64,000 bases of DNA, taken from contig VIIQ02000582.1 in assembly GCA_007449985.2 (NCBI GenBank), forward strand, positions 62,001 to 126,000. Direction: 5' to 3'. Below are positions 20,963 to 60,269 of this stretch, in pieces. The position numbers were made by a program, and so were the translations under genes. This DNA is from Desmodesmus armatus. Lineage: Eukaryota; Chlorophyta; Chlorophyceae; Sphaeropleales; Scenedesmaceae. How positions within the stretch are numbered: the stretch's first letter is position 1; each line of letters opens with the position of its first letter. A model generated the notes under the pieces. The model saw only the letters and a list, made by a program, of their open reading frames with translations. It made no database searches and had not been told where the DNA came from.

Positions 20963-21710
20963 CAGTCGAGCCGACCGCGGCTCCTCAGATTTGTTTATGC
21001 GATGGTGTCCCTGCACAGCTCAGGCCGTACATTCGATACAAATACGTGCCCCATTTGTCTATCATGATGACATAATTCCTTCCTGTGGAGCCCAGCACCA
21101 TAGTGGCGCCTGTCGTCATGCTGCTTGCCGCGATTGCTCCTGTGATGGGGCAACCAACATGCAAAGGCCGCAGTGATTGCTGCTGCTTGACACTGTTCTG
21201 CCTTGAAGCTAAACATATACTAACATCACCATCCTCAACAGAGGCAGCTGCAGCAACAGGGGTTGATTCACATGAATGCTACTGCTGAGTACTTCAGCTT
21301 TGCTTCCTCTGCGGCGGAGTAGCAGCGTGGTTGTGGGAACCTTCTTTGCACTCACTGCCAGCGCATTTTGAGGACTGTGCTAAACAATTGCCTTGCGTAT
21401 GTGCCAATGTGGCATCCCTGTTAGCCCCCAATTCCCCAAGGCACGGTGTTCAGTAAACAAGCAAAGAGCTGGAATATGCAATGGCTTTCCACCCGCACAA
21501 CATCACACTGCCACCACATCACCTTACATCTTACAAGCTGGTCTCACAGATCGTGCAGTACTGTGCACACCACAGTGATCCCAGTAAGCAAGACACACAA
21601 CAGCAGATACAACCACTAACCACTTCTTTTTGTTGACAAACACGACAGCTTCAGCCTCTGCGATCTTACTACAACACAGCAGCACACACAACACAACAAG
21701 CAACCTGGTG
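20963..21710. other. Promoter of glycine-rich gene 2 and 3' UTR of peptide deformylase
   Basis: Two TGTAA motifs on the minus strand (21524-21528 and 21531-21535) lie about 175-185 bp past the deformylase stop and probably mark its poly(A) site. The short dispersed element described separately is inserted in this 3' UTR. No other gene is seen. Confidence 0.5.
21607..21675 (+). mobile_element. Short 3'-conserved retro-inserted element, copy 1
   Basis: Contains the family core CAGCCTCTGCGATCTTA near its right end, followed by CTACAACA. It is flanked by the 7-bp direct repeat ACAGCAG (21600-21606 and 21676-21682). It lies in the 3' UTR of the deformylase gene. The short, less certain flanking repeat suggests it is the oldest of the four copies. 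Confidence 0.6.
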
Positions 21711-24432
21711 TCACCGTCTGCTACCTCCAAAGCCTTTGGCTGCTGCTTTTTGGGCTGGTACCCGCTGCACCTTCACCCCAGGGTTTGCAGCCATGAAGGT
21801 CTCCTCTAGCTCCAGCAGCTGGGGCCTCACCTTCTCCACCTCTGAGGATTTCATCCTGTCATGGAACAACACACCCTGCAGCAGCAGCAGCAGCAGGAGC
21901 AATGTTGGATGTCAAGCAAACGGCTGTGAATCCTACGATGCAGTCCAGAGAAGTGAAGCACTGCAAGATACTGACATGTCAAAGGGGCACAACACCCAAC
22001 CAGCACCTTGAGCCACAAGCCACGCCAGTCAAGCAGCCTCTCTCTGCAGTGCATGCAGCTTCAACAGCGCAAACGCTGCCAATGCAACCAACGCGCCGTC
22101 AAAGCCACTACAAGGTGTCTGGACAATCAACATCGACAAACCCTGCGCATTGGTCCAACCACAGTCAGCAAAGACCCAGGCTTCCCATAGGCTGCTAGAA
22201 AAGTAGACAGCACCATCAGCAAAGCAGAGGATGAGCCGCACCTGTAGGTGGTCATACTCATGTTGGAAGATGCGGGCCACAAAGCCTGTCAACTGCATCT
22301 CCTGCTGCTGCCCTTGCAAGTCTTGATACCGCACCTCGATCTTTGTTGAACGCTGCAGCAACACAGGCAGTGCCAACAGAAAAAGTACACACCGTCAGCA
22401 CACAATGCACCTGTTACATCAGGCGACGACTCAGGATAACAGTCAGTTCAATCAGAGCACATCATGTGACACGCCTCCCATGTGACAAGCCCACCTGGCA
22501 CCCAGCAGTACCACATGGGCCCTGCTGTGCCTGTTGCGCGCTAAGGCGTGCTGTGGCATGCTGTGGTGGACTGTCCGTTGGGAACACACAGTTGGTTCCA
22601 CAGCCAACCTCAATCAACCCGCCTCAACCCAGCCACCCACCTCAACGTCTGCGTAGATCCTGGGGAATGACAGGCAGCCCTCCTCGTCTGCCTCTATAGC
22701 CTTGCTCTTCTCTATGATCTGCACATGCACACACAGCAACACTTAGAGTCCCCCCTCATTTGAAACCCAACACATGTGGCACAAGCTTGTGTGGCACGAA
22801 ACAGTTGCAAGCAGCTGCAAGCGCTGTGCCGCCAGGCGTACCTGGCATAGCGCAACGCAGAAAAAAATACATCAAATGGGACAATCATTTGTGCAGCAAC
22901 CCTATTGGCTGAGCAGTGGCTGGCCCACTGAGCAGTGTGCACACCCTGTACTTCATCACCAGCTGCAAAGTGACGCGCCAATGTGCATGCGCAATAGCTG
23001 CCTGTCACAAGTACAGACAATACCGCACCCACCAAACCACTCCCTACCTCTGGGTTGACCAGCACTGTTTCAGCTGGGTCGCCCTGCTTTGCTGTTTCGT
23101 TGAAGACCATCAACCGCACGTTGACCCCTACTTGGGGAGCCGCAAGGCCCACACCATCGTCCCTGGACACAAAAGCAGCGCAGCAGCACAGCCACGTAAG
23201 CATAGCACAGCATAGCACAGCGCCAACACACTCTGTGTCAACACACAGCCGCCGAGTGCATCACACCAGCATCAGCATGAATGAATGCAAAACTGCAAAC
23301 AAGGAATGGAAAGGGCTGTGGGGTGCGGAGCGTCCTGTTGAACTGGACACTGTTCGCATATGTGTATAGACACAGGGATATTATCTGATACGCCTGCTGC
23401 AGGCTGGTTCAGCGCTGGGCTGCCAGCCCACTCAGTCTAGATTTGTATAACATGTGGGTTGTCTCTCCTGGGTCTGACACAGGCAGCCAGGTCGGCGCTG
23501 TCAGCCAGGATCCTGCTGTGGCCTCGCACAGACCTTCCTCAAGAGGACAGGCCTGCGTCACAGCTGCTGTGTGAAGGGGCACAGCAGTGCTGCAGTGCTG
23601 GCCTTTGCTTCAGCAGGAGACACCCCTGTAGCTTGGCTGACATGCAAACCATGCAGTGCGCTCAGCACTCCTGCAGCTTGCTGACTGTTGACTCACTGGT
23701 ACATGATCTCAAACATCTGGGTAGCCAGTTGTTTGAGTGTGTCGTCGAAGACTGCGATTTTGGCATTGACCGCCCGTAGGCGAGGGTCTGGGTACTTGAT
23801 TATGGACAGCGGCGTGCTCCATTGCAGCTTGTCAACTGCAGCAGCATGCAGGGCTAGTGTCAGGCAGGTGCAGTGTGACACATGCAAGTTGCAGCTGGGT
23901 GCCAGCAACCCCGGCAGCAGCACTGCAGTAACAAAGTGCATGACAGCATGAAGACATGCAAGCAACTGGCTGCATGAGCAATGCACAAGCAGTGCTGGAC
24001 TGTTGTCCTTGCTGGTACTTGCGGTTGCAGCTGTGGCACATGCACATGATGCCAGCAGGCAGCCAGGCTGTGCTCCTTCTGAAAGGTAGTGTACCTCACA
24101 CAGTAGTGTGAGGTCACACGCTGAATGCAACTCATGCGTCAACACAAAGCATGCGATAGCTTGTGGACCTGGCTGTGGGGTGATGGGAGATTCCCCCTCC
24201 CCCACCACCACTCCTGGCATGCTGCTCACCCTGTCCAGGCGAGTCTGCCTGCCATGCATGGGTTGATTCACAGATTTCACTCACCAACAGGCACTTCCCG
24301 AGGTGCTGCAGTCCTGCGCGCCTGCATGCGGACGTTCCTGCTGCTGGGAGTCATTGCCGCTGCTGGTGCCGCTCCTGACGACGCCCGCCGCCAGCTGCTG
24401 CTGCTGCTGCTCCTGCTGAGATGAAACGCCAT
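21711..24432 (-). CDS. PDF1B: Peptide deformylase, organellar type (PDF1B-like)
   Basis: Six exons: 24432-24285, 23835-23697, 23162-23048, 22718-22641, 22340-22242 and 21875-21711, giving 247 aa. The enzyme removes the formyl group from N-terminal Met of proteins made in plastids or mitochondria. All three catalytic motifs are present: GVGLAAPQ (99-106), EGCLS (147-151, metal ligand Cys149) and QHEYDH (186-191, ligands His187 and His191, catalytic Glu188), followed by LQGVLFHDRM. The N-terminus (MAFHLSRSSSSSSWRRASSG) is Ser/Arg-rich and acid-poor, as in an organelle transit peptide. The C-terminal tail is basic (QKAAAKGFGGSRR). The EGCLS and HEYDH spacing fits PDF1B better than PDF1A, but plastid or mitochondrial targeting cannot be separated here. 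Confidence 0.93.
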
Positions 24433-25160
24433 GCCACGAGGTGGATTGGACACCAATTGGTGTATCACACGCCCTGTCACACTGCACTGCATGCACTTGT
24501 GCTTGCCTGGGGGCGAGGAGCGTGGGGAGGTCACCAACCCCTTGATAAGGAGGTCACCAAACACTGAGTCAAGCCGAAGAGGGTGGGTCAAGGGAAGCCA
24601 GATCATACAGGAACAAAATTAGGTGGTTTGAAAGGCCCATGTCATCGGGAGCCTTTGTAACAGATGAGTGGCAATCACTTCTTGCACCTGCAGACAGACA
24701 GCACTCCCACATTCCCGCACGTTGTTCACGAAGTGACTAGTTCAAAACGACATCGTGGAAATACCACAGTGCTTCGGTAGGAGCCCGCATGCGTGAGGCC
24801 GTTGGCTTGCATCGTGCCTCGGAGAGCTCGCAGAAGGGTACTCAGCAAGTTGTAGTTGCGGCTGGTGGCATCCAGACGCCACCAGCCAGCCAGCCGTGGC
24901 TGGCTGAATGCAGCAAGGCGTAGGGAGCGGAGAGGTATGATATGAAGCATGCACGCTTGTGATCTGGGGCACGTCGGCAGCACTTCTCAACTTTGGTATG
25001 GCCTTCATGACCCCTGCATACCCATCGGGCACTCTCCTGCACCAGCCAAAGGGGTCTCTCCATCAGCTGTTGTCAACAGCATTGTACGCCCGCATCGGGC
25101 CCCTCCTGGACCCAAGGAAGCTCATGTGACATGCTGCATGACGTCTCTGCTGATTTGCAG
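24433..25160. promoter_or_regulatory. Divergent upstream region, deformylase / RAZUL-tailed protein
   Basis: About 730 bp. It should hold the deformylase promoter and the unresolved first exon of the plus-strand gene. Frames at 24949 and around 25005 on the plus strand are open but cannot be joined to the next exon by a believable intron, so I leave the first exon undefined. Confidence 0.35.
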
Positions 25161-28100
25161 GACACCTGCGGGCCATCCATCGACGCTACGTGCAAGCGGC
25201 TGTCAGATGACCGAGACAACAGCAGGGACAGGGAGCGCACAAGCACTGCCCGGCAGGTGCGTTGCTGGCTGCAAAGTGGGACGCAATATCGTATTCAGCA
25301 TGTTCAACATCTGCTGGTGGTGGCAAGTGGTCGGAATAGCCTTCCCGCCATCAACACCTGCATACCACAGCTTTTGAACACTGACACAAGTGCATTGCTT
25401 GTGGCCTTGCGTTGGGCGCACTGCAGGGCCAGGAGGCATCGGATGTGAGCAATGGGATGACTGGCAGCGCCCGAGCCTGCGACCGTGCTTGTGATGGCAA
25501 GCTGCAGGCAGCTGCCAACAAGCCATGTGCAGATGCAGCCCCGCACAGCCGCGATCACCAGCAGCCCAGGGATGTTGTGTTTCCAGCAGCAGCTGCAGCC
25601 GGGCAAAGCGCCTTCGCTGCTCAGGCCGGCAGCTTCCCTGAGTTTGGCACATCAGCCGGCAGTGACCAGGGCGGCAGCTTCATGCGACCAAGAGGGGTGG
25701 AGGCCATGATGGGTGGCCAGCGCAGGACAGCCTCTGGCGCGCTGACATCTCCCTCTGGCCTTTCTGACCATGGCAGCCTGCTCACAGAGCGTGCAGCATC
25801 AAATGCCAGTGCACACAGGACACTGCTGGGTGGGATCAGCCCCAACGCCGCCAGGTCAGCTGCTGCTGCACCAGCACCAGCTGCAGCGTCAGGACTCCTG
25901 GAGCTGCCAGATGACGCTCTAGTCAGCGACGATGGTGATGGTCCTGTTGCTGCAGCTACCACCCCAGAGCTGGCACCAAGTGGGGATGGCCTGCGGCAGC
26001 AGCCGCAGCAGCTGCTGCTGCAACGCAACTCACCAGAGTTGTCGGCAGCAGCAGCTGGCGCAGCGGGGCTCACAGCACCAGCAGGAGCAGCAGGTCCAGC
26101 CAGGGGCAGGCCTGCTGATCTTTTGATCCCGTCACCAGCGGCCACCTTCTATGTCCCCGTGAGCCCTGCCACTGGGGTGATGCACGCCTATGCTGGCGGC
26201 CCCATCCCCATCGACGAGCTGGACCTGGACTTGATTGATGGAACCCCAGCGTGGACGCATCCGGGCTCAGCACCAGCAGCAGCCCCACAATCAGCGGGGT
26301 GCCCGTTGGGCGCAGCACGCCAGGCCACCTGCGCAGCTCGAGGGACCACGACCTGCGCCGCATGGCCGTCATCAACCAGATGCTGAGCCCCAGCATGCAG
26401 CAGGGGGCAGCAGCGCACATCACAGCAGCAGGGGGCAACAGCGCCGGTGGGCCCGTCATCAGCATCACCCCAGATGGTGGACAGCTGCAAGGCCCTCAGA
26501 TGTTCACAGGGGCCACCCGCAACCGCGCGCTGGCCGGCAGCAGTAACAGCCTGGCGTCCACAGCCTCGGGCGTTGAGCAGTACAGCAGCACGGAGTCGTC
26601 GTCTGAAGCTGCAGTGCAGTTCCTGCAGTCGATGCGCCTGTCGCCTGCACCCAATGGGTCGCCGGCGCGCCCGCGCTCAGCAACCGCAGCAGGGCCGCCG
26701 CGTCCGCCGTCAACAGGAGCCAGCAGGGGAAGCTCGGCTGCAGGGTCGCCCGTGCCACCCGCCAGCCACGGCGCCGCAGCAGCACTCCTGGCTGGGAGTG
26801 TGGTCGCCAGCCCGCGCACACCACACTCCCCTCTCAGCGTGATGCTTAGCCCGCGCACCAGCAGCGCGCGCATGCTCAGCGGGCAGGGCACCGTCCTGCC
26901 AGGGCCTTTGTTCAGCAGCGGGTTCAATGTGGCCTCAGCCACAGGGCCTAGCCCTGGGACCAGCCCGGGCACCAGCAGCGTCGCCGCTCCCAGCAGCACA
27001 GCCAGCAGCTGCTGCACCGGCTCCAGTGGAAGCACAGCAGCGCCTGCAGGGCAGCCGCCTGCAAATGCAGGCGGCCGCAGCAGCCTGCTGTCGTCCACAG
27101 GGGCAGCTAACAGGAGGCTTACGTCTCCATCGCCCACAGCAGGCATGGCAGGCATGGCTCAGCAGCAGCAGCAACAGGGCGAGGCAGCGCCGCCGCCAAC
27201 GCAGATGCAGCAGCACCTGCGCCAGCAGCTGCAGCTGCATGACACGCGCTTGGGGCCGCATGGGGGGTCCCCGCTGTCGCCGTCCCACCACCACCAGCAG
27301 CTGCCCCCGCGGGGAGACAGCTTACTCTCCCCCTCTTGCCCTACCCCCCTGGTCCCGCCGGCTTTGACGTCCGCAGGTAGTCAGCACAGACTGCCTGCAG
27401 ACGGCGCGGCTGCAGGAGTGATGCCGGGAGCCCCCGGCACCACCCCTGTCAGCCGTTCGGCGGGGGGCGTAGGGCATCTGAGGATCCACGAGTGGTTGGA
27501 CCACCAGTCGTGGAGGCTGCCGTACGAGGTCCCACAGGGCCTCAGGGACGCAGCAGATTTGAGGGAGGCAGCTTCGCAGGAGCAGCAGCTGCACGGGCAG
27601 TCGCGCATGGGGCCCAGCAGGGGCCCTGGCAGCAGCCGGGCCAGCAGCCAGAGGAACAGCCTCACTAACCTGGAGTCGCCAGGGAGCTTGCTGGTCAACC
27701 CTGGCGGCCAAAGCCTTGGGCTGGGCAGATTCCCTGCAGGCGCAGGGGGCTTTTCAGGCGCTGGGATGCCGCCGCCGGCCCTGCACAGCTTGCATCACCA
27801 GCCGCATGCGCTTGCAAATGGCCAGCATCACCAGCATCACCACCACCACCACCACCAGCAGCAGCAGGGCCTGGGTGAGCGCTCGCTTGGATTGCTGGCT
27901 GCCATTCAGAGCCAGGTGGGTGCAGCACATGGCACAGCACACAGCGGCCAGTTGGCCGGGCCGGCGGCAGGGTTTGATGGGGACCTAAGCGTGGGGGCAT
28001 CTGGGCCTGTGAGCACCGCACAGTTGCCCGTGCACACCGGACTGGCTTTCCTGCCAGCAGGCAGTCCAGCTGGGGCCTTGTCGGCAGGGGCTTCACCCTA

Positions 28101-29381
28101 CCATGGGTTGGACGCGCAGCAGCAACAACACCAGCTGCACCATCCAGCAGCAGCAGGCGGGCACAGCAGCAGCAGCGGGGGGGCTCACAGAGTGGGTTGG
28201 AGCCCTCTGGGGCCTCTTGGGCAGTACTCTTGGGGCCTTGGAGCCCCTCGGCAGCTGTCCCTGACCCCAGGGCTGCCCAGCACTCCACCCCAGGCAGTGA
28301 AGCTGCCGAGGGGGTGTGGTGTGACTGTGAGGCGCAAGCACAGTGCCCGCATGCAGCGTCACGCCAGGCAGTTGGAATGGGTTTGGTACGCGCGGCGCAG
28401 CACAGCGACGCAGATACAGGCAGGGACAGCGGCGGCAGCAGCACCGTGGGCCCAAGTGCCGTGCAGCTAGGCGCTGGCAGCCACCTGTATCCTGCCTGCA
28501 GCCCTGGCAGGCATAGCTGCAGCAGCTGCTGCGGCCAGCAGCATGGGGATTGCACCTGCGCTACAGCAGGAGCAGCAATGTGGCCAGGTGCATTGGAGGG
28601 AGCACATCTGAATCATCCAGCCATCCAGCACAGCCCTGGCAGTGGAGCAGCGGCCTGCAGGGCTGGCAGCGACAGACCGGCTGGAGGGTCACTTTGCGCT
28701 GCATTGGATGTGCGGGAGTACCAGCAGTCAGCTGCCCCACCCACCTGGCGGCAGCTGCAGAGCCCCTTGGTTTCACCCAGCTGGCGGTGTGCTGGTGCTG
28801 ATGTTGATGCGGACGCCGCTCGGCAGCACGTGCAAGCTGACCAGCATGTGCTGCCGGGCATTGCGCAGCTGCTGCAACGACGCGGCGAGCAGCAGCATCG
28901 CACCCGGGCTCCTGCGCAGCAGCAGCAGCCGTGGCAGCGGGGTGTCAGCAGCCCAGCCGCACTGCCCGACAGCAGTATGGTTGGTCCGCCTTGGGCATCT
29001 TCTGCGTCAAGTGGGCTGGGGGCTGCAGCGGACGCGCATCCAACAGCCACAGGAGGGACAGGCTGTCGGGATGACCAGGGCCGTGGTGTAGTGGTGCCTG
29101 CTGCTATTGCAGCTGCTGCTGCTGGCAGGTGCAGCAGTGATGGGGGCAGTGAGAGCTCCCCGGCCAAGCGCAGCAGGATAGCTGCAGCCGCACAGCGCAG
29201 CCAAGGCGACAGCAGCCAGGGTGGCGGGGCTACTACGCTTGTTGAGCTCTTGTGCGACAAGGGGTTTGTCCTGAGGGTGCTGCGCACGTTACCTGGCGTT
29301 GACCCACAATCACAGGTGGTGTGGGAGGCAGTGGCAGAGCTGCAACAGGCGCTGCTACACAAAGGCAGCCCGCCAGATTGA
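25161..29381 (+). CDS. Long low-complexity protein with Rpn10 RAZUL-like C-terminus (5' end unresolved, two frameshifts)
   Basis: Exon 25161-25256 (DTCGPSIDATCKRLSDDRD and on) joins in phase 0 to a very long exon, 25427-29381. The protein would be over 1300 aa and is rich in Ser, Pro, Ala, Gln and His, so mostly disordered. Islands of order are HLRSSRDHDLRRMAVINQML and LRIHEWLDHQSWRLPYEV. The last about 40 residues, DKGFVLRVLRTLPGVDP and on, resemble the Rpn10 C-terminal RAZUL helix pair, which in Rpn10 binds a ubiquitin ligase. The frame shifts twice by one base: near 26245 (a run of four C) and at 28177-28183 (a run of seven G). Adding one base in each run keeps the protein open, so these look like homopolymer sequencing errors, although true mutations cannot be excluded. 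Function is unknown. Confidence 0.6.
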
Positions 29382-30211
29382 TCAACTGCAGTGAATTATG
29401 CAGCGGGGCTGCCTGTGAGAGCATACTCCCGCTGCGCGATGATAGCGCTGCGTGCCACAGGGTGTTGTGAAGCACCCACGTCGTCTGAGTGTCTGCCGAT
29501 ATGACTGACGTTGGTGTTTTGTCTTTGTTGGATCCTGCGTGTGTGGCCATGCCATTAGTTCCAACGTGGATGCGTTATGTCTCCTCCCGCTGTCGTGATG
29601 TGGGCAGGCTGATCCAATCAAGCAGCTGCTGTGGGGTTCAAGCAATTTATTGTATGTGCTTGTGGCTTAAGTGCATGTTGCAGTTGTGCATTTCCTTGTT
29701 GTGCCCTGCTTCTTGTACCAGGACATGCCTGCACACTCCTACACAGCCAGTTTTTGTTTTGCCAGTCCCAGTTTCTCTCTGTCTTTCTCTGTCTCTCTCT
29801 CTCTTTTGCCTGGGGGGCCAGGAGGGTTGTACCTTGATGCTGCAGGTTGGGCTGCTGACCGTGGGGGGGTGAAGCCCCATGCATTGGGACAGGGAGCCTT
29901 ATGCATGGCCTTGAGTGGGCACACTCCGCTGGCCCCTGGCTAGCTATCCGGTGCGCGGCTGCTTGGCTGTTGGTTGTCAGCGCCCCACCATGCTACTCGG
30001 CAGGTGCCTGCAGAATTGTCTTGTTCATCTGCAGCATAGGGATGACTCCGCTGCTCTTTTGTTTTGTGAAGGGGGATCTTCTCCAAGCTTTTCTTTGTGG
30101 CAGTGTGCCGGAGCTTCTTTGTTGGAGTGTGCTATGGGTTCGTTAGCAAACGGCGCAAGCAGTTGCAGCAGTTTGTGTCCCCTCCCTCTGCCGGCGGGCG
30201 GATCTTGCTGC

Positions 30212-30268
30212 CCATGTGATTTATGGCACTCCTCCAGTTATGCCCATGTGATTTATGGCACTCCTCCA
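30212..30268. repeat. Two-copy tandem repeat, about 33 bp
   Basis: GCCCATGTGATTTATGGCAC and the following CTCCTCCAG occur twice in a row. A second two-copy duplication with a 20-bp unit lies 150 bp further on (30417-30457). Both are recent slippage-type events. Confidence 0.8.
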
Positions 30269-32558: not shown

Positions 32559-32775
32559 CAGTCATCAATAGCTGCAAGGCTTCAACACACAAGCCAACTA
32601 CCTGTCTTTTCATCGTTGACAGACACGGCAGCTTTAGCCTCTGCGATCTTATTACAACACAAGCCAACTACCACAACCAGTCATCAATAGCTGCAAGGCT
32701 TCAACGCACAAGCCGACTACCACATCCAGTCATCAATAGCTGCAAGGCTACAACGCACAAGCCAACTAGCAACAA
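32559..32775. repeat. 49-bp tandem array, three units, first unit interrupted by an insertion
   Basis: Units begin CAGTCATCAATAGCTGC at 32559, 32678 and 32727. Units 2 and 3 are 49 bp apart; units 1 and 2 are 119 bp apart. The extra 70 bp equals exactly the 54-nt element copy 2 plus its 16-bp target-site duplication. The neighbouring units therefore show the empty site. Confidence 0.9.
32603..32656 (+). mobile_element. Short 3'-conserved retro-inserted element, copy 2
   Basis: 54 nt containing GTTGACAGACACGGCAGC and then AGCCTCTGCGATCTTATTACA. It is flanked by a perfect 16-bp target-site duplication, ACACAAGCCAACTACC (32587-32602 and 32657-32672). It sits inside one unit of a 49-bp tandem array, whose other units reveal the uninterrupted target. 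Confidence 0.85.
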
Positions 32776-33108
32776 GTAGCCCATACGCCCACCTGCTTCA
32801 CGGTATCAGCTGACAAAGGATACAAACGACAATGGCCAATCCAGCTACCTGCTTTTGATTGCATTCAACACGCCAACACACAATCCATGACCATAGCATG
32901 GTTACAGAAATTGACATGAGCCTGCTTCAGTGCAGCAGGTAGGGTGCTTGCAGACACATAGCAAGGCCTGTGCTCAATCAAAATTGATAGTAAATGCAAA
33001 AGAGCCTGCTTGACTGGAGAAAAGCAAGAAAACATAAGTAAGCAAGCACATGTTCAAACCACTTGATGCAAGCCACAGGCTGTCACACCAATCATCACAG
33101 TGTGACCA

Positions 33109-34507
33109 TTAGCGGTGGCTGCTGCGTGCCTCCAACACTTCAAGCTGCTTGGGTGGGCGGTACAACCGCAGCAGAAGCGAGCTGGCCACCACAGAGACAC
33201 TGCAGCACAGAACAGACACATCAAAACGGGTCAGGTCGATGACATGTCCATACATTGCCTGCATGTGTGCGGCGTGCGGCCGCAATTGCCCAAACTGTGT
33301 GCAGATGCACGGCACATGGCATGCCATGATATCACCCAGCCTCGTGCTGAGAGCCTGTGGCGAGCTGTGGCACAGCGTCGAGGTTCCTAAATGCAGAGCC
33401 CACTTGTTACCCGCCCCAGCCCCTTATCGTAGGGTTGACCCTCACACCCAGTGGGTGTCATCCACCCTCACCCCATTCTGCTCACCTGCTTGCCGCCATC
33501 GCAACAGCAGCAACCCATGGCGGCATCAGCTGATGAGTGAAGGGATACAGCACACCTGCGGCAGCAAGGCGTGGGTCCATGGACCGGCATGGCATGGCGT
33601 GTCAAGACATGGCCTTTGACGGTGGCACAAGCGTGCGCACTTTGGTAGCCACTCACCATCACCCCCTCCTTTTGGAAAGAACCACACACGACCCTGAAAA
33701 TGTTACCTCCATCGACACTTGCATGCCATGCAGTGGCAGTCACCACCTGACAACCATACATCACCATGCTGGATATGCATGCATGATGTGTGCAACCAGC
33801 CATGCTCCCGAGTGGTATCGACAACTTGAACCTGCATCTCTTGCACATGTCTATCACCTTATGGGCTAGCAGCCCTTGTGAATGCATGAGGGTCAGCACG
33901 GGACATGTGGTCAAGCAATGCACATACCTGCAGCCACTGGGATGGCGAGCACATTGTAGCCAAAGGCCCACACAAAGTTGAGCACCATGCGGCGGTAAGC
34001 CCTGCAAACACAGTCAGCAGCGCACCACAAACAACACAGGTCATGGGATGAAGCGAATTGGCGCCTATGCCAGGGCTGCATGTAAAACATAGCCATAGCC
34101 AACATGAAGCTGTAGCAAGAGCTTGCCTTTGAGCTTGCCTTTGGATTTGCTCTGCTACATGTGTGAATAGCCTTGCTGTACATGCAGCAGACACATGCGC
34201 AGCAGACACAACTAGGGGACCAGAGCTGCAATTGACAGATCCCAGTACAAGAACACATGCGCACACAGCTGACATCTCTCACCCTACTCAGCCTCTCACG
34301 ATAGCCAGAGTCTCTGAGCTCCCGCCACCGACGCTCACCTTCTGCTCATGTCAAATGCCACCACAACCCCGGCCAGGCTGTTACGCATCAGCACAACATC
34401 AGCAGCTTTGATAGCCACGTCAGTCCCGCTGCCGATCGCGATGCCCACATCTGCCGCCGACAGCGCAGGACTGTCATTTATGCCATCGCCAACCATAGCG
34501 ACCACAC

Positions 34508-34540
<33 letters not shown>

Positions 34541-44081: not shown

Positions 44082-44276
44082 GTGGCAAGCTTTTTTTGGC
44101 TGTTTCCTACATGCGGAGCTGACTCAGTTGTTTAACTGGAGTTGTATACCAAACCGGGGTGCAGGATTCAGAGCTACGGCAGGTTTTACCAGGGGGAAGG
44201 CTACGGTTGACAGGTTGGTGATGATTGAATGTCTGTTTGTGAGTAGTTGGAGCTGTTGCAGTTCAAAGTAATACAG

Positions 44277-44445: not shown

Positions 44446-45276
44446 CAGATCGTTTTCGTATGAGGCTGGTTTGTCCTGCCGCTGTGGCCTGCTTGTGATG
44501 CAGTAGCTGGCAGTCTTGTCACCTGTACCTCACATGTTGAGGAGTTACATGTCACATGCGCTTCATCTCAGGGTTGGAAGAGTTAAAAGTTGTCGATGGC
44601 TGGCCCTTTCAAATGTGTGGAAGCCGCGGGCGGTCAATGTGTTGTCGGTGTGGTCTGTGTCACAGTGCTACAGCTCAACTATCTCAGCACGTTGCTCTTC
44701 CCTCGGTTCACCTGGTTTTGCGGTGAAGTCTTGTCTTGTCAGTTCAATGCAACAAAGGAGCAATCAAGTGCCATCACTCTTCCCACCACATGTTGTGACC
44801 TCCTATCATATCGGCTGGGCGTTTTTGGCTCTGCAGTCATTTCCAGGCTGGAAAGACCAGCAAGCAAGAATACCCCACCAAACAGCAACAGTTGCTGAAC
44901 TGCTGATCACAGTGAACTCATAAGGCTGATAAATGCACTAGTCACTAAACTGGGCACGACAGCTGCAGCCTCTGCGATCTTACTACAACATAAACTGGGC
45001 AGGTGTGACGTGCATTCCCAAACCAGGCAAACATTGTGACAACATGAAATGGTAACGTGCGTTTAGAAGAAGTACAAGCAACATATATCTATACATACAG
45101 TTGCACTGTCTGCAAGCTGCAGGACCATCACTAGATTGGATAGGGCTGAAGTGGGCGGCCAGCCACCGGGAGTGCCCCTGGCAAGACGGAGTCAATCTGC
45201 CAGCCTGGCCACAACACAGAACAGAACAGCGTGCCATTGACCACCACCAGATGCATCAACAACAAGCACACAGCGA
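44446..45276. other. Convergent intergenic region, LRR protein / CDK8
   Basis: Contains the 3' UTR of the minus-strand CDK8 gene, including element copy 3. A minus-strand TGTAA occurs near 44543. No gene is seen. Confidence 0.4.
44957..44990 (+). mobile_element. Short 3'-conserved retro-inserted element, copy 3 (strongly 5' truncated)
   Basis: Only 34 nt: CGACAGCTG, then CAGCCTCTGCGATCTTA and CTACAACA. It is flanked by the perfect 11-bp duplication TAAACTGGGCA (44946-44956 and 44991-45001). It shares its 3' end with the other copies but starts much later, as expected for 5' truncation during reverse transcription. Confidence 0.8.
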
Positions 45277-50949
<5,673 letters not shown>

Positions 50950-51501
50950 CTCACTGGGTGGGGATGCTGCACTGACTGCAGATGTACACCAACAGCTATG
51001 AATACTGCATGTGCACGACTGTGGCTGTCTTTACTTCCTGCAGCCCGTTGTCAATGTGCGACGATGGGACTGTCCCTACTGTCTACTGTCATGGGTCCTG
51101 TTCACCACACACAAAGGGGCAGCACTGTACTTGTAGGTGCTTTATTCCTGCCTGTGTTCAGAGTTGCAATCCCTCTTTTCACCCTTGCTGGTCCTGCATT
51201 CACTCAATGTTCATGATTTGGAGTTTCCTTGGACCCGGGAGGTTCTGCATGTGACATCAGGAAACGAGCGTTCCACACAGATGAACGGAGCATTATAACT
51301 TGTCAATGGATACATGCACAACTTGCATCGGCGTTGCCAACCGAACCGTTGCAAAAGCAATCTGATCTACCAACCAACTTGGTTTCGTAAGCAGTCGCTC
51401 TGCCTACCTGCTTTTGCTACCATCGCAGAGCCTCAGGGTGTTTCAGCGAAACTCAGGCTTCGCACAGTGCAGATACCACCCAGATATACCCCACAAACAC
51501 A
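50950..51501. promoter_or_regulatory. Divergent promoter region, CDK8 / DDRGK1
   Basis: About 550 bp between opposite start codons. No distinct TATA box or known element is visible. Promoter role is inferred. Confidence 0.35.
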
Positions 51502-54338
51502 ATGCTGTTGCCAGTGCTGGCGCTCGCCGGCCTTCTAGGCTTGGTGGCAGGCCTAGCAGTATACCTGTTTATGCAGCAGAAGCAACCAGCAGCAGGAGGT
51601 ATAGAAGCATCAGAGCCAGAAGCAGCAGCAGCACCGAGGGTACGCTGAGGAAGCTGTGCTAGTGCAGTCCAACATGTTCCACGCTGCCATTGGTCCTACG
51701 CCCAGCAAGGCACAGCTGCCACCTACTACATACTGCTTGCATGACTTAACCTTCTGCACCACTGCACTGCACACGTCATGCTGACACACCTGCGCTGCTG
51801 CGCTATCTTTGGGTTGCTTGTCGCTGAGAACAGAGGGCCGGCCGTGCTGGGCGCGATGCAGACCGCTTGAGGCGCCAGCAGCAGCGTGAGCAACAGGAGC
51901 AGCAGCTAAGGCGCAGGCACGCAGCACAGCAGGATTCAGAGGACGAGGAAGAGGTAGGCTGGCCCCAACACTGCTTTGCAGCTGCAGTATGGCAGGATGG
52001 CCCTGCCTAGGGCCCTACAACACCCAGTGGTCACGAGCGTACACGCAAGGCGTGCATGTGCAGTGCAGGAGCTGCTATCAACATTGCATAACTGGGCCAG
52101 CCGACTGGAGACGTCCCATAGATCAGGCCAGCTGCGCAGTTTGTGTAACCACCTCCTCTGAGCCTCTGCAACCCCAGCAGCTGCCAACACCCAACACTCC
52201 TCTATCAATTGCGGCAGGAGGATGCATGGTGGCGCCAGCATCCCTACAGCAATCAACTTGGGTGCATGTAGCTTGCCCCGGCTGTGTGTAACAAGCATTT
52301 CTGTGGTGCATGCACCAACCCCGCACTTGCCTAAACAAACTGCAGGAGGGTAGTGAGGAGGAGCCTCCAGAAGACCCCAGGGAGCGACGCCGCTGGGAGC
52401 AGCAGCGCGCAAGGCGTGATGAAGAGGCCCGCCGGCAAGCCAAGGCTGACAAGATCAGCGCGTACGAGGACAAGCGGCGGGCAAAGGAGGCAGCAAGGGA
52501 GGCAAAAGAGAACGCGCAGGTAGGCGTCGAGGACTGGGCTTGCAGTGGGGGAGAAGTGCAATGCATCCGTTGGCTTGCTGCTTGTCACAGGTCTATCATG
52601 GGCTGGTGCATGTTGACTGCGGGAGACCTTTTGGTGTTTTGTCTTGCCTCGGCTTTTGGATACCTGTTATTTGGTCACTCAACGGCCAGCCAGGAAGGTT
52701 ATGCGTTGGCACAGACTTATGCCTTACCAGCAGACTGAGTGTGCTGTGTGTCGTGTCCTGCAGGAGGAGGAGATCAGGCGGGCTGCCGAGGAGAAGCAGC
52801 GTGCTGAAGACGAGGAGGCAGCAAAGTGGATGAACATGATCAGCGTAGAGGACACGGTGGGTGCCCGGGTGGTGAACATGTAAACATGAACATGAAAATG
52901 GATGCTGGGTGCTGTTGTTGTGGGAGGCACGCGTCAGCCCGACTGGGGAGCGCGGGAGAGAGGCCTGGGTTCTGTAGCAGGAGCGTAGCGAGTTAGTGAA
53001 GCGTGGAGAGGAATAGCGGTTACTGGATGATAGGAAGGCCTGGGGAACACCACTTGAGTACTGTAGAGACTCTGTATAGTGGTGGCTTGCATGACGTACC
53101 CTAATATAGGGATCAAGGCCAGACGTAGTGCTATCGTGTGTACGGGAGGTGGTGGGGTCAAGTCATTTGCATCCATCATGCCTGCCCCCCGTGTTGCCTG
53201 CAGGGCACGATTGAGGAGGCGACAGCTGCGGAGGACACTGGGCTGCTGGGGCGCTTTGTAGGTGCGGCACGCCTGCAAGCAGCTAGCACTGCAGTGTGGC
53301 CCCAATGCTGTCATCATCTGCTTGTGCTGCATGCATGAGTCAGCCTGACTTCCTTGGGGCACCAAAGTACAGACAGAGGTTCACACTGGGCGGAATGTTC
53401 AGCGTACCGTATTTTATTTGGCAGAGGCCTGGCCTGAAACGTACGTCATTGTGGGCCTCCTCCACTGCCCAGCAGGGTGAGATAGTGCAGCAGTGCAGCC
53501 AACTTGTCAAGGTGGTCGCCGCTGGCATTGTTGATCACTGTGTATTTCCTGTGGTGATCGCTGCAGATTACATCATCAAGCGCAAGATGGTGCCGATTGA
53601 GGAGGCTGCAACTGAGTTTGGCCTGCGCTCAAGTGAAGTGGTGGACAGAATCCAGGCAAGGACAGGCTGGCTGTGTTGGTTGTTGTGAAGTTGCGGTTGC
53701 TTGGCTCAGCTGATGCCTTATTCGGCTGACCAGCAAACCATGTGATTGTGTAGGTAGTCAGCATGTGGGGCGCCACACTGCCACCAGCAACCACCAGGAA
53801 ACGGATCAAAAGGAACACTGCCGTGACTGATAAAGGAATTGCGCAGGCCACAGAGTTAGTCATGCAGAGCATGCAAACCTAGGGATGACGGCTAAGAGCA
53901 TGCCTGTATGGTGGGAGGCATGCAGTTGGCCTGCTTGGCAGTGAATCAGGCTGCGTTCTCCACACAGCCTGTGTACAAGCTGCAGCAGGTGGCTGCCACA
54001 CTGTGTGTGTGTTGCAGAGCTGTACACGGCTGATATTGTACACGGTGTGCTGCTGCTTTTGGTGCGTGCTGCAGGGATTGGAGGCTATGGGCCGCATTTC
54101 TGGAGTGATGGACGAACGTGGCAAGTTCATCTACATCGGCAGAGAGGAAATGGAGGCAGTTGCAGCACACATACGGACCAAGGGGCGGGTCAGCATCGCT
54201 GCTCTGGCAGCAGCCAGCAACAACTTGATAGACCTTGAAGCCAAGACGGCTGTAGAGGTAGTGGCAGCTGGGGGAGGAGCCACAACAGGTCCCATGATTG
54301 ACTTTGACAGCATGCTGGAGGAGGAGGCTGCAGCTTGA
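51502..54338 (+). CDS. DDRGK1: DDRGK domain-containing protein 1 (UFBP1), 311 aa
   Basis: Seven exons: 51502-51639, 51834-51953, 52346-52519, 52764-52856, 53204-53261, 53567-53655 and 54075-54338. UFBP1 is an ER-membrane adaptor of the UFM1 ligase (UFL1) complex. It begins with a signal-anchor helix (MLLPVLALAGLLGLVAGLAV, then YLFMQQ). A highly charged helical region follows (RRRWEQQRARRDEEARRQAK), then KWMNMISVEDT and the winged-helix end DYIIKRKMVPIEEAATEFGL, RSSEVVDRIQ and ERGKFIYIGREEM. The length is close to the human protein (314 aa). The sixth intron starts with GC instead of GT (CAG then GCAAGG, 53656), a known rare donor type. The 3' neighbour PGRL1 is in tandem, with 412 bp between stop and start. 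Confidence 0.93.
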
Positions 54339-54750
54339 CTGCCTCACCATCAGCTTGCTGCAGTGCTATGAATTGGAGTTTGCAGGAGTGTTGGTGCTTG
54401 GCAAGCTTGGTTGTTGCCTGTGTGGTGCATGGCTTTCTGGTACTTGCACAGATCAACTGTGCTGTGGTGTGTGCAGGTTGGCATGGTGGTTTGACTGGGA
54501 TCGATGTTTTGACATGAATTAAGGTGAATGCGCCGTATAGCTGGCGTGTGTGGTCCGTGTGCTGCTCATCACTCACAACATCACAAACGAGGTTTTTGTC
54601 GGCCTGGTGACCAATCGCTCGCCGAAGCCGTTTCGTCCAATAGAATTACAGCAGCCTTGAACCTCTGTGTGCAGCCAGCTCTCTCTGCTTTGTAGCACGC
54701 CCTGCTCGATCCCCAGGCAACCCTCTTACCGAACCAACTTGCTAGTCAAA

Positions 54751-57700
54751 ATGAAGTGCTTGGCGCAGCGTTGTTGCAGCAGCTGTGTCGTCAGCCAGCG
54801 GGCTGTGCGGCCAGCGTTTCAGCTGCCTGGTCTGCATGGGCAGAAGCAGTGGGTTGTCAGGGCCCAGCAGCAGCAGGTGTGTGCTATATCACACAGGGGC
54901 CAGGGAAACATGCCCAGTGTGGAACAGTATGCCGCTGCTGCTTTGGCTGGGCAGATCCTGCATGCCTACTCCAGTTGCAATTCACAGCAGTAGCACTGAA
55001 ACAGCAGCAGCGGATCAGCACTAGGCATGATCGCCAGCTTCTTGCCCACTGGTGGACCATCACGTCTGCATGTCAGCATCACTTATGACCGTACACGTCC
55101 GGAACCAGGCCTGTGCTTTCCCATGCTTATCATTAGTGGGATGTGTGCTGCAACACTAGTAGCACCAGAGGAGTGTGAAAAGGACTGGAGAGATTTGGCA
55201 GTGGGCTAGGTCCTCCCAACCCCTTTGGCTCTATCAGCAGCAGCTATGCCTGCGGCTGAGTGGAGCTGGCCGCCGTGTGTGTCGTGCTGGCATGCGTTGC
55301 TGCTCCTGCAGGCCCCTCCAGAGCTGCAGCAGTCCATTGAGGAGGGTGTCAATGTGACTGGAGACTTCTGCTCGCTGGATGGTTCCGGCAAGCGCGTGAG
55401 GGAGCGCACCATGGGAGAGATGGAGCAGGTGTGTCAGCAAAGCAGTGCAAGGGGCAGCCTGACCTACTAATGGAATATGTCTGCCTTGCAGAGCATCGGG
55501 GCAGTGTAAGCCAGGCAACAACCCCGTTACCCACTCACAGATCTCTGTGCAATTGTTGTTTGGTTGTAGTGGCGTACTGCAAGCCTCGTGCTGGCATAGG
55601 CGTTGTCCTACCATGTGGTGTTGTTGGTACCGTTCTGGCTCCATGGATGCCCCAAAGGCTGAAGTTTACGTAGCTTTTAAAACTCCACCAGCAGCTGTTG
55701 CCAGACACAAGCCATGTTGTTCAGGGCATGCCGCATGCTTTTGATGGCCTCCCTAGTATCCAGCTGTGTTGGTGCAGCAGCTGCTTTGAGTAGAGTGCCC
55801 TGACACATGCTGCCAATCTTTCACACCTGTGCTGTCACAGGAATTCCTTGAGGCCATGACCGCCTACTACTATGGTGACAAGCCCAAGCTGTCTGATGAG
55901 GAGTTTTCGCTGCTCAAGGAGGAGCTGATCTGGAATGGTAGTAAGGTGGGGCTCAAGTCAGGCGGACTTCACATGCCATTCACGAGCACTGGTCACTGCC
56001 GCAGTGTGCTCCTCACCAGGGCAGGGCTCAAGGGACTGCAAAACACCGGCATATTTGCCGGATATACCGTAAAAAGTATAAAGTATAAAAAAGCATTTTT
56101 TAGACTAGATGTATATAATAAAATGCCTACTTTTTGGGCTCTGGCAAAGCCAGATAGCACTTGCCCTAAAAGAGTATCTAAAATTTTAGCCTTTTTATGT
56201 ATATATTAATTTATCTCTGTGCAGGCTTAAAAATTTGCCTATTTTCTTTTTTGAAATCTGCGAGCTTCCAGTGTCTAAATTTTTTTATGGGTGTTTAGAC
56301 ATTTAGTTATTTTCTAATGCCATTTTCTTTTTTAAATTTGCTGTACCTGGCCATTGGCATCTGGGCTTTAGCTCTAGCCATAGGGCATAAGCACTAGCCG
56401 AAGGGCTCTGGCTTTGCCAGAAAGCACTGGCGTTAGCCAGGCTAGGCTAGGCAAAGCCAGTGTGCTCTCTGGCGTCTGGCAAAGCCAGTAGCCAGTGCCC
56501 TTTAATTAAATAAAAACGGTTAAAAAAAATATATATATATAAAAGCCATATCTATTGCTTACCTCCTTACTTAAGCTATATAGTGCATTAACCATTATGC
56601 TATAAAAGAATTTATAAAAGAGATTAATTTGTACGTGAAAGGAATTGAACCTTCGTTCATAGTTTAGAAGACTACTGCCTAACCACTCGGCCACACGCAC
56701 CAGTATATTAAATATAAATAAAAAAAGTTTAATTAAATAGTTTGAGCTACAAAAACAAATACTGCATTTCTAACAAAACCTGCAACCATATGTGTTGGAT
56801 GTATCCTGCCTGGGTTCGCATGTGGTGCTGTCAGGGCCCTGAGTGCCACCCCAGTGGTGTCACTTACGTGTCCAACAGCAGGCCTCGGCCTCAGTATACC
56901 TCATGACGTGTCTTTTTGCAACACTTGTGCCTCTGCTTGTCACACACATCACACAATCAGCCCAACAGCCTGGCCACCGTTGCTTGTACTGTCACCTGCC
57001 TCACATGCATGTCCACTGCTGCTGTGTCCCCGCAGGTTGCCATCCTGGATGGTGACGAGCAGCGCTTCCTGGAGGCCAGCATGGCATACAGCGCTGGCAA
57101 GGCCATCATGAGTGACGAGGACTATGACGCCCTCAAGAACGAGCTCAGGATCCGCGGCAGCATTGTGTCAGCACAGGTGGGGGTGGTTGCTGAGGGTGGT
57201 TGCTGACGAGGTTATGGGCAGATGGGTGGAGCTGTCAAGTATCACCCTTACTGCATGTAAGCATGTGGTGGTGGTGTTGCAGTTGGTGTTCTGCCTTATG
57301 CGTGCTGTCCTCATCTGTGGTTGGTTTTGTGTGATGTTGGCGTGTCATTGTATTCAACTTGACAGATCATAGCGATTGTCTAGTGTGGCAAGGGACTGCA
57401 GGCCCAACACCACCATCCTGTCTGTGGCGGACTGTGCTGTACTGTGCTGTTCTGTACTTTACTGTACTGTGCCCCAGTTGTATATTTTCTGGCCCAACAC
57501 CGTTTGATCATGACAACTTCCTGCTTGTTTTGCCTGTCGGGCACGTGTGTCGTGTCCGGCAGGGTCCCCGCTGCAGTCTGCGCAGCAAGAAGATGTACAG
57601 TGACGCCTACCCCGACTACCTGCGCATGACAGCACTCAACGTGCCTGCTGCCCTGCTGGTGCTGGGCTTCCTGTTCAGCATTGATGACATCACTGGTGGG

Positions 57701-59015
57701 TGTGGCTTCCCAGCTGGCTGGTGGACCGATAGTAGTAGTTTACAAGCTCGGATGCTGTAGTAGCCCAGCAGTCAGCAGCAGCTTCCAGTAGTGATTTCCA
57801 GCAGTCATGTTGGTAGACATCGCGTGCTATGGAAGTTGGCAAGCGGGTCATTGTGCTGCGGGTGTCGTGGGGTTCAGTGCGCCTGATCTGGCTTGCGGCT
57901 GCGTGCGCCTTTGCATATATATACCTCACTTTGGGGCTTCAGCTTTTTATGTTTTACTTTATTACTTTTGTTTTTTATTTTTATTGTTATTTTTGGTTTT
58001 ATTTTTCCTGTACCTCACTTTGGGGCTTCAGCAGGGGCGTAGCCTAGCGCAGCATGTGCTCTCTGGACCAACAAAATGACCCGGCCCCTTATGGGCACAG
58101 CCTGTGCCGCACAGGTGCTGCTGTTCTTTTGCTGAAGCCCTTTGACGCACCATTGTCGCTGCCCAAATGTCATCTGTCACTGACTGTCAGTCTTGCTCCC
58201 TCTGCTGCTGCTGATGGTGCAGGGTTTGAGGTGACCAGCCTGATTGAGCTGCCCCCACCTGGCGGCATCATTGCGCTGTGGGCCGTGGTGCTCCCTACGC
58301 TGTACCTGCTGTCCACCTCCATCACCAACCTGGTGCTCAGGGACCACACCATCCTCAAGGGACCATGCCCCAACTGCGGCACAGACAACTTCACGTACTT
58401 TGGTGACATCTTCACTGGTGGGTGGGGCTGTTGAAAAATGCGTCGCAATCAGCATGTACATACAGTATCATGATGACGTCGATGGTGTGGGTAGACTGTT
58501 TGGCCTGTTGGCAGTGCCTGCAAGGGGCAGCTGCAGATCAGGCATGTGGCGAGGTCCACAGGGAGCCCTGGGTGTTGGTTCGCTGGCAAATGTATGTGTT
58601 GTAGGGTCCAGGGCTGTTGCAGAGATGGCAGTGCATGCGTGCAAGTGTTGCTTGGGCTTTGTTGCACCGTGCATGTTTGCAAACTGAAGCACCTGTGAGC
58701 ACCTTGTGTGGCTGTGTCAAGGGCTGCCAGTGTGGTAGTAGGCTCACTGACACGTATTGTGTGTTCCGCCGTTCGCCGCTACCTTTCTTTGCCTCGACAG
58801 TGTCTGGCAACAAGGGCGTGAACGTGCTGGAGTGTCCCAGCTGCAAGGCAGACCTGTCGTACGACATGAAGAAGCGCGTGATTGCGGTGGACCGCACCCC
58901 AGAGGACAAGGCAGAGGAGATGGCAGCAGCAGCTGCCAAGAAGGCGGCAGCAGCAGCAAAGAAGGCCGCAGCAGCAGCTCGCAAGGCAGCAGCAGCACAG
59001 CAGAAGGAGGCGTGA
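54751..59015 (+). CDS. PGRL1: PGR5-like protein 1 (PGRL1), cyclic electron flow, 343 aa
   Basis: Seven exons: 54751-54876, 55312-55428, 55841-55945, 57036-57176, 57563-57695, 58223-58417 and 58801-59015. PGRL1 is a thylakoid protein that works with PGR5 in cyclic electron flow around photosystem I. A transit-peptide-like N-terminus (MKCLAQRCCSSCVVSQRAV) leads to GEMEQEFLEAMTAYYYGDKP, DEQRFLEASMAYSAGKAIM, GPRCSLRSKKMYSD, two membrane helices (about 186-205 and 221-240) with IDDITGFEV between, and LKGPCPNCGTDNF. All six conserved redox Cys are present (62, 167, 256, 259, 284, 287). The C-terminus is an unusual Ala/Lys-rich tail. The third intron (55946-57035) holds an organelle-derived insertion and the fifth intron (57696-58222) a T-rich insertion. 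TGTAA lies at 59518-59522. Confidence 0.96.
56046..56785. mobile_element. Organelle-derived DNA insertion (NUMT or NUPT) in a PGRL1 intron
   Basis: About 740 bp of sharply AT-rich sequence (TATATATATATA, AAATATAAATAAAAAAAG) inside a GC-balanced intron. It carries a tRNA-Arg(UCU) gene and clusters of short GC-rich palindromes (GGCAAAGCCAG, CTGGCTTTGCCAG) of the kind that litter chlorophycean organelle genomes. The right edge is near 56785 and the left near 56046, where a short hairpin CCGGCATATTTGCCGG occurs. I cannot tell plastid from mitochondrial origin. Confidence 0.75.
56631..56700 (-). tRNA. trnR-UCU: tRNA-Arg (anticodon UCU), inside the organelle-derived insertion
   Basis: A full cloverleaf reads on the minus strand. 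The acceptor stem GTGCGTG pairs with CACGTAC at all seven positions (one G-U). The D arm is GCC...GGC. The anticodon stem GTAGT/ACTAT has loop CTTCTAA, with anticodon TCT. The T arm GAAGG/CCTTT has loop TTCAATT. CCA is not encoded. As a nuclear copy of an organelle gene it is probably not expressed. Confidence 0.8.
57922..58032. mobile_element. T-rich 67-bp insert flanked by 22-bp direct repeats, PGRL1 intron 5
   Basis: TACCTCACTTTGGGGCTTC followed by AGC occurs perfectly at 57922-57943 and 58011-58032. Between the copies lie 67 bases that are almost entirely T with some A and G. The direct repeats look like a target-site duplication. Read on the minus strand the insert is A-rich, as in a poly(A)-like retroposed tail; a short AT-rich organelle fragment is the other option. 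Confidence 0.65.
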
Positions 59016-59961
59016 GCAGTAACGAGCTGGTGGTTTGGCTGCAGCTAGGAGACAGTGTGTCACGGCAGCTGGCAAACCTGTTTGGTATGGAGTGGTTGCG
59101 GGTGTGTGAGTGAGTGGTTGAGGGCTGCTGCAACCAGACCTGGAGTGTGTTGTGGGGCTTGGCATTGTTGGCGTGTGTTCTTTCCTACGAGCGTGTGTGT
59201 GTGTGTGTGTGTGTGTTCTTTAGGCCTCTTGTTCTTGGAGAGTGCTGTTTACTATTGTGTGCAGTAGTGTCCCAAAGCTACTAGCTATGAGTAGTCCTAA
59301 GCTGCGCTGTTGCAGCTGTCTTGAGTGTTGTCAGCATACGTGCTGTGCTGCTTGCATGTGTAGCCACCTTGTGCCTTGTTGTGGGTCTCAAAGGATTCCT
59401 GGCAACAGCACTGCAACCTAGCGCCTGTTCAGAGCGGTGGTCTTAGCGGGGTACAGTTGACAAGCCCACTGTGCCTGAACCTGTGCAATGTGCACTGACT
59501 GTATGAGGGCATCTGATTGTAACACGGCTATCAGTGTAAGGCTCCCTACGTTGACTCCTGGACGCTGCATTCACCAGTTTGCGGTGCGAATTGTTTTGGT
59601 GCGCGGTGCAGCAATGGTGGTAGACAGACATGCTGTGTGAAGGCAAGACAGACACTAGCTGGCTGGCCTCATGTTATCATGTTATGCCTGTGCACACTGC
59701 AGCCAAAAGTTGTCACCAGGAGTGACAGGCATGTTTATGTATCATCAATTAAACTGCAACTGAGCCTTTCCGCCGCAAGAAAGAAGTTGTGATCTGCAGG
59801 CCAGAGAAGTGACAGCAGCAGGAGTCAGCTGGTGCCTGCTCTATGTGCACACGTCAGTGAGGATGTTGAGGAGCTGTCCGCAGAGGCGGGCTGCTTTTCA
59901 AAAGCAGTGCTGGCTCACAATCACAGGCCCTAAGCACAGAGTCACACAACAACATGAAAAT

Positions 59962-60024
59962 GCATATGCATCACTTCTTCTTTTCGTTGACAGACACGGC
60001 AGCTTCAGCCTCTGCGATCTTATT
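59962..60024 (+). mobile_element. Short 3'-conserved retro-inserted element, copy 4 (longest clean copy)
   Basis: 63 nt ending CAGCCTCTGCGATCTTATT, flanked by the perfect 16-bp duplication ACAACAACATGAAAAT (59946-59961 and 60025-60040). It shares TTGACAGACACGGCAGCTT with copy 2 and extends further 5' than copies 2 and 3. Confidence 0.85.
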
Positions 60025-60269
60025 ACAACAACATGAAAATCACGGCTAGCCTATTGATGCTGAGTCAGCCTCATGCCAAGGGTGTTTGGCTGCATGGCAA
60101 GAGAGACGCTCAAAGGGCTGTCATGTGATGTTGACAAGATGACTCATGTTGCAAGCAGGGGACATGCATATGTTGTTGTGCTACCTGCTGTGACCAGCGC
60201 ACCCAAGGACAACGCAGGCTGCAGACATCAGACTCCACGACAACGCAAACTATGACACATTAAAAGAAC

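What the first reader, a model, noticed from the sequence alone, without database searches (positions are those of the whole stretch)
21600..60040. New family of very short TSD-flanked elements with constant 3' end and variable 5' truncation
Four copies (21607-21675, 32603-32656, 44957-44990, 59962-60024), all in the same orientation, share the 3' core CAGCCTCTGCGATCTTA followed by YTACAACA but begin at different points (34 to about 69 nt). Three have perfect flanking duplications of 16, 11 and 16 bp; the fourth has 7 bp. A constant 3' end, 5' truncation and target duplications are the marks of target-primed reverse transcription, yet there is no poly(A) tail. They may be the tails of a LINE or SINE, or retro-inserted pieces of a structured RNA. 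All four lie in 3' flanks of genes.
Basis: partly seen in the sequence, partly recalled or inferred. Interest (0 to 1): 0.82.

Follow-up and report, generated by a model that had tools for sequence, protein, structure and literature searches.

The report
Truncated non-coding retroposon of an alga
The four short repeats are fragments of a non-coding jumping element, about one kilobase long when complete, that is scattered in hundreds of copies through this alga-like genome, most likely by copying RNA back into DNA; it is a new family of a well-known kind.

Summary
The 17-nt core occurs 4 times in the window and 849 times, at up to 1 mismatch, in the 115.8-Mb genome; the reversed-pattern control gives 0. 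Of 34 copies not chosen by length, 25 have exact target duplications of 10 bp or more, against 142 of 2548 swapped pairings. Copies end at ATCTTAYTACAA(C) with few variants, share nothing downstream (29 flanks), and are 22 to 661 nt long in the 25 clear cases, median 63. The duplication often begins with bases that repeat the RNA end. Copy 2 sits in a 49-bp minisatellite whose next units show the empty site. A longer parent exists: about 1.0 kb, without a Pfam-matching frame, a known RNA or poly(A). I read it as a non-autonomous, SINE-like non-LTR retroposon inserted by target-primed reverse transcription. Head-to-tail junctions fit template jumping. No helper LINE was found, but only a small part of the candidates could be checked. 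The host is probably a chlorophyte alga (weak evidence). New family of a known kind.

The parts
21600..21606 (+). 5' target duplication of copy 1 (ACAGCAG, 7 bp exact)
21607..21675 (+). copy 1, 69 nt, 5'-truncated
21676..21682 (+). 3' target duplication of copy 1
32587..32602 (+). 5' target duplication of copy 2 (16 bp), in a unit of a 49-bp minisatellite
32603..32656 (+). copy 2, 54 nt; core with 1 mismatch
32657..32672 (+). 3' target duplication of copy 2
32658..32768 (+). minisatellite units downstream without the insert, an empty-site control for copy 2
44946..44956 (+). 5' target duplication of copy 3 (11 bp)
44957..44990 (+). copy 3, 34 nt
44991..45001 (+). 3' target duplication of copy 3
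59946..59961 (+). 5' target duplication of copy 4 (16 bp)
59962..60024 (+). copy 4, 63 nt as bounded by the maximal duplication
60025..60040 (+). 3' target duplication of copy 4

Best explanation
The four copies are 5'-truncated insertions of a non-autonomous, non-coding retroposon of about 1.0 kb. Its RNA ends in ...GCGAUCUUAYUACAAC(A) without poly(A). A LINE-type enzyme nicks the target, the RNA's terminal ACAAC(A) pairs with the nicked strand where the target reads ACA or CAA, reverse transcription starts there and often stops within 100 nt, and repair leaves duplications of 10 to 25 bp in the clear cases. Shown: common 3' end, duplications, truncation series, overlap of tail and target, a longer parent, lack of coding capacity. 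Inferred: target priming as the mechanism, the helper LINE and its recognition of the RNA end, template jumping.
For: 849 genome matches, 0 in the control. Exact duplications of 10 bp or more in 25 of 34 copies not chosen by length, against 142 of 2548 swapped pairings, and in 14 of 17 further copies chosen for length (two of these 14, L049 and L050, lie in repetitive flanks and are doubtful). 18 copies chosen for length align up to the same 3' end with unrelated sequence after it; 0 pairs among 29 downstream flanks match at E 1e-6. Probes starting about 54, 318 and 601 bases before the core find 490, 72 and 40 places, against 849 for the core; the outermost 302 bases find 7 places, 3 of which reach the first 12 bases, two of those being one duplicated locus. 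In 36 copies the duplication begins with bases that continue the RNA end: mean 2.4 against 0.33 in shifted flanks, two or more bases in 24 of 36 against 6.5%. The tail of L035 reads ACGACG like its target, not ACAACA, so these bases come from the target. L040 has a piece of the element's 3' end joined to a 5' end that L044 shares to within two bases. On contig C612 the tail stands three times head to tail. L007/L008 show one copy inserted in another. Neighbouring minisatellite units show the empty site of copy 2.
Against: No helper LINE with this tail was found: none of 11 reverse-transcriptase hits on C1-C35 has an exact core within 10 kb downstream on its strand (lists compared by eye; 100 exact cores, and 150 of 627 reverse-transcriptase candidates); the LINE in L042 is followed by TGA repeats. 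No 3' hairpin is supported: 0 of 38 predicted pairs show compensatory change, most columns hardly vary, and the 3' end folds little better than shuffles (z -0.58 and -1.10). 9 of 34 copies lack an exact duplication of 10 bp. A few tails deviate (L009, L014, L021, L037). The overlap of tail and target could in part be target preference of the nicking enzyme, and the 36 copies were chosen for exact duplications that include the overlap.
Confidence: 0.88

Rival explanations
1. The copies are 3' ends of an autonomous LINE: the 1-kb element is only part of a longer LINE whose complete copies are rare, diverged or missing from the assembly.
For: Many reverse-transcriptase genes are present (150 scored of 627 candidates). 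5' truncation of LINEs is the rule (established knowledge).
Against: In the 20 long loci, homology in register with other copies ends within about 1.0 kb, apart from whole duplicated loci (L036/L041, L038/L039) and two weak matches kilobases upstream (L036/L037/L041, L039/L040); most have duplications at the border. Two copies of another variant, L053 and L054, have unrelated upstream flanks. L040 and L044 start within two bases of each other, and L040 has a tail-to-head junction there. 4 of the 6 frames of 50 aa or more in L040's element region were scanned, 0 Pfam matches.
Confidence: 0.08
2. Tailless retropseudogenes of an unknown host non-coding RNA: the constant end is an internal priming site on a longer RNA, as proposed for therian LINE1.
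For: No poly(A); start at a short match to the target; head of unknown origin; therian examples have defined 3' end points (PMC5322556, abstract and one section read).
Against: The tail-to-head junction of L040 lies at the same end, which fits a true RNA end. Several hundred copies, at least two variants and nested copies fit a replicating element. None of the 66 sub-threshold Rfam matches lies in the element; but an RNA not in Rfam is not excluded.
Confidence: 0.08
3. Chance or low-complexity matches, or a conserved host motif such as a 3' processing signal.
For: CA-rich flanks can give short chance duplications; the core also occurs once in a phage gene, by chance.
Against: 849 against 0 in the control; duplications far above swapped flanks; empty site in the minisatellite.
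Confidence: 0.01

Closest known systems
SINEX-1_CR, SINEX-2_CR and SINEX-4_CR of Chlamydomonas reinhardtii (tables of PMC3747384, passages seen)
   Same: SINE-type families of a green alga with a head listed as unknown and a 3' end that is not poly(A).
   Different: Listed with (ATT)n or (CTTT)n ends and RandI partners; here the end is YTACAAC(A), no partner is known and the longest copies are about 1.0 kb. Sequences were not compared.
Green-algal L1 and RTEX LINEs with (CAA)n and other short 3' repeats (table 3 of PMC3747384)
   Same: Short CAA-like 3' end; a likely kind of helper.
   Different: No reverse transcriptase here; a CAA run extended to about four units is rare, 6 genome places at up to 1 mismatch.
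Short internally deleted elements such as Persaeus with its CR1 partner Zenon (PMC6740152, abstract and outline)
   Same: Short derivative mobilised with a LINE's help.
   Different: No parent LINE shown here, so origin by internal deletion is untested.
Tailless retropseudogenes of therian mammals (PMC5322556, abstract and one section)
   Same: No poly(A), defined 3' end points, target duplications.
   Different: Those come from many host RNAs; here one repeated family.

Membership tests
Non-LTR (target-primed) insertions | Common 3' end with variable 5' truncation | tested here: met
   probe counts 849, 490, 72, 40
Non-LTR (target-primed) insertions | Target duplications of variable length | tested here: met
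   25 of 34 against 142 of 2548 swapped pairings; empty site
Non-LTR (target-primed) insertions | Poly(A) or simple-repeat 3' tail | tested here: inconclusive
   No poly(A); one or two CAA-like units in most sampled copies; longer CAA runs in 6 places
SINE in the strict sense | Head from tRNA, 7SL, 5S or another known small RNA | tested here: not met
   No Rfam match in the element in L040 or L044, the two longest copies; a pol III promoter was not tested
SINE in the strict sense | 3' end shared with a LINE of the same genome | tested here: inconclusive
Autonomous LINE | Reverse-transcriptase frame | tested here: not met
   Longest frame within L040's 1-kb copy is 92 aa; 4 of 6 frames scanned, 0 Pfam matches
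Short internally deleted LINE | 5' and 3' ends shared with a LINE | tested here: inconclusive
   The 302-base 5' probe finds 7 places: six copies of this family and one duplicate of the L040 locus
Tailless retropseudogene | Identified host RNA as parent | tested here: inconclusive
   None among Rfam families; an unlisted host RNA is not excluded
Stringent-type LINE/SINE 3' end | Conserved 3' hairpin with compensatory changes | tested here: inconclusive
   0 of 38 pairs with change on both sides, but most paired columns hardly vary; weak folding

The most novel reading that the evidence does not exclude
A non-coding RNA with a defined, tailless 3' end is used by a LINE-type enzyme that primes on a match of a few bases and often stops within 100 nt, so that the genome is seeded with hundreds of nearly minimal insertions; these give a natural record of how short a target-primed insertion can be (22 nt here).
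Probability: 0.3. Interest if true: 0.5.

Novelty: new member of a known kind. Interest (0 to 1): 0.4.

Why it matters
Inserts this short are easily missed by repeat screens (my judgement), yet 15 of the 25 clear cases in the sample are under 100 nt. The family offers many independent records of how target-primed reverse transcription may start without a poly(A) tail: how many bases of the RNA end match the target, how soon synthesis stops, and whether the enzyme jumps templates. It would also add a SINE-like family to the green algae; in the table that I saw, the green-algal SINEs are all from Chlamydomonas (PMC3747384).

Tried and rejected
Known RNA parent: Rfam on the window gave one tRNA. 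A permissive search on five long loci gave 66 matches, all below their gathering scores, 62 of them in L032; by their coordinates none lies in the element. I thought of an H/ACA box RNA because of the end ACA-ACA; nothing supports it.

Helper LINE: the LINE in L042 (endonuclease and reverse transcriptase) is followed by TGA repeats. In L051, 1 to 3.5 kb past a reverse-transcriptase hit on C3, there is no matching tail. A broken LINE in L049 does not show its 3' end. L052, found with the 5' probe, is a duplicate of the L040 locus interrupted by another element whose frame looks DIRS-like to me (not tested). L053 and L054, of a variant found, have unrelated upstream flanks.

3' hairpin: no support, though the alignment varies too little for a good test.

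Core in viral contigs: one exact match, in a phage gene, by chance.

The core's other strand can be read as coding (KIAEAEA); rejected, since copies are cut at any point and flanked by duplications.

Dropped rows: L032, L039 and L041, duplicates of L002, L038 and L036; L009, L047 and L049, odd tails, before the 36; L007, which overlaps L008, before the 29 flanks.

Literature: searches were seen as listings. In some searches (490 and 2,420 papers, 20 and 10 listed) no listed paper held the words Scenedesmus or Tetradesmus, so these searches say little.

Full report
The four sites are real. The 17-nt core is found four times in the window, all on the + strand, against a mean of 0.19 in shuffles.

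The window belongs to a 115.8-Mb genome in 831 contigs. The core occurs there 849 times with up to one mismatch, 420 forward and 429 reverse, and 0 times for the reversed pattern. An ATPase exon of the window has its best hits among unnamed proteins (up to 74% identity); the first two organism names in the list are Monoraphidium minutum (42%) and Tetrabaena socialis (35%). This suggests a chlorophyte green alga, weakly; the species is not known to me.

My sample is the first 30 exact genome hits (all on contigs C1 to C4, not chosen by length) plus the four window copies. 25 of these 34 have an exact duplication of 10 bp or more and 18 have 12 bp or more. When the 3' flank of one copy is compared with the 5' side of another, 142 and 22 of 2548 pairings reach this (swapped pairs come from all 51 non-redundant copies). 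The 25 copies, as bounded by the longest exact duplication, are 22 to 661 nt long, median 63, and 15 of 25 are under 100 nt. About two of 34 would reach 10 bp by chance at the control's rate. Nine copies lack such a duplication; two of them, L013 and L021, show 16-bp pairs with two mismatches (by eye). 29 downstream flanks of 700 bases share nothing with each other.

Copy 2 brings its own control. It lies in a 49-bp minisatellite. With the element and one duplication taken out, the array aligns with its own next units over 87 bases.

The longer parent exists. Twenty stretches of about 10 kb round long copies show homology in register ending at different places up to about 1.0 kb before the core, apart from loci that are duplicated as a whole (L036/L041, L038/L039) and two weak matches far upstream. 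14 of 17 non-redundant ones have exact duplications of 10 bp or more; L049 and L050 among them are doubtful because their flanks are repetitive. Six of 18 long copies (L002, L036, L037, L038, L042, L043) start within a few bases of ATGAACTACACTAG, about 640 nt before the core; this may be a second RNA start or a strong stop for the enzyme. The two longest, L040 and L044, start within two bases of each other, at GCACCAA; L044's duplication is short and ambiguous. In L040 this start is preceded, inside the duplications, by GATCTTATTACAAC, the element's own 3' end. That is what a jump from the 5' end of one RNA to the 3' end of another would leave; template jumping is described for the R2 reverse transcriptase (PMC8857657, abstract seen). 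A threefold tail on contig C612 and a double tail in L016 may have arisen so, or by tandem duplication.

Copy number falls steeply towards the 5' end: 849 at the core, then 490, 72 and 40 for probes starting about 54, 318 and 601 bases before it, and 7 places for the outermost 302 bases, of which 3 reach the first 12 bases. Divergence at the probe sites adds to this decline. The longest frame within the 1-kb copy of L040 is 92 aa, 4 of 6 frames scanned have no Pfam match, and no Rfam match lies in the element.

The 3' end hints at how synthesis starts. The duplication often begins with bases that continue the RNA end ACAACA: 2.4 bases on average in 36 copies, against 0.33 in the same flanks shifted; two or more in 24 of 36. 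Its first base is A in 25, C in 7, T in 4 and G in 0 of 36. L035 reads ACGACG there, like its target, so these bases stem from the target strand. This fits priming by a short match between RNA end and nicked target; part of it could be preference of the nicking enzyme, and the copies were chosen for duplications that include the overlap. A conserved 3' hairpin has no support.

The helper is open. The genome has many reverse-transcriptase genes. None of the 11 hits on C1-C35 has an exact core within 10 kb downstream on its strand (lists compared by eye; 100 exact cores, 150 of 627 candidates). The LINE of L042 is followed by TGA repeats.

In print, the nearest kin that I saw are the SINEX families of Chlamydomonas, several with heads of unknown origin and partners among RandI or L1 LINEs, and green-algal L1 and RTEX LINEs with CAA-like 3' repeats (PMC3747384, passages and tables). 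My searches for SINEs of Scenedesmus, Tetradesmus and Monoraphidium (listings only) showed no paper on such a family; this is weak evidence, since few listed papers concern these algae and subscription papers and repeat databases are not held.

It is a new family of SINE-like, non-autonomous non-LTR retroposons, notable for very short insertions and a tailless 3' end that matches its targets.

Noticed in passing
window 56630-56700 (-): tRNA-Arg gene, anticodon TCT.
   Followed up: no
window 32560-32768: 49-bp minisatellite, interrupted by copy 2.
   Followed up: yes
L042:6358-9900 (-): LINE with Exo_endo_phos and RVT_1 domains in a frame of 1181 aa that runs to the locus end, followed by TGA repeats.
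   Followed up: partly
L049:1-7875 (-): Broken LINE with endonuclease and reverse-transcriptase parts; a later frame holds a PHD-finger-like Cys/His pattern (my reading; Pfam gave no match for that frame).
   Followed up: no
L045:7672-9753 (+): Frame with RVT_1, RNase H and a Dam-type adenine methyltransferase domain, as known from DIRS-like elements (recalled).
   Followed up: no
L007/L008 (C1, about 1232690-1232810): One copy of the family inserted inside an older short copy, each with its own duplication.
   Followed up: partly
long copies, about 640 nt before the core: Six of 18 long copies begin within a few bases of ATGAACTACACTAG, near a GTTCATGAAC palindrome; second RNA start or enzyme stop not distinguished.
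   Followed up: partly
C612:260442-260501: 27-bp tail unit repeated, three cores head to tail.
   Followed up: no
C18, C64, C78, C558, C605 and others: A variant of the element with an extra stretch of about 75 bases near -510 and a changed probe site.
   Followed up: partly
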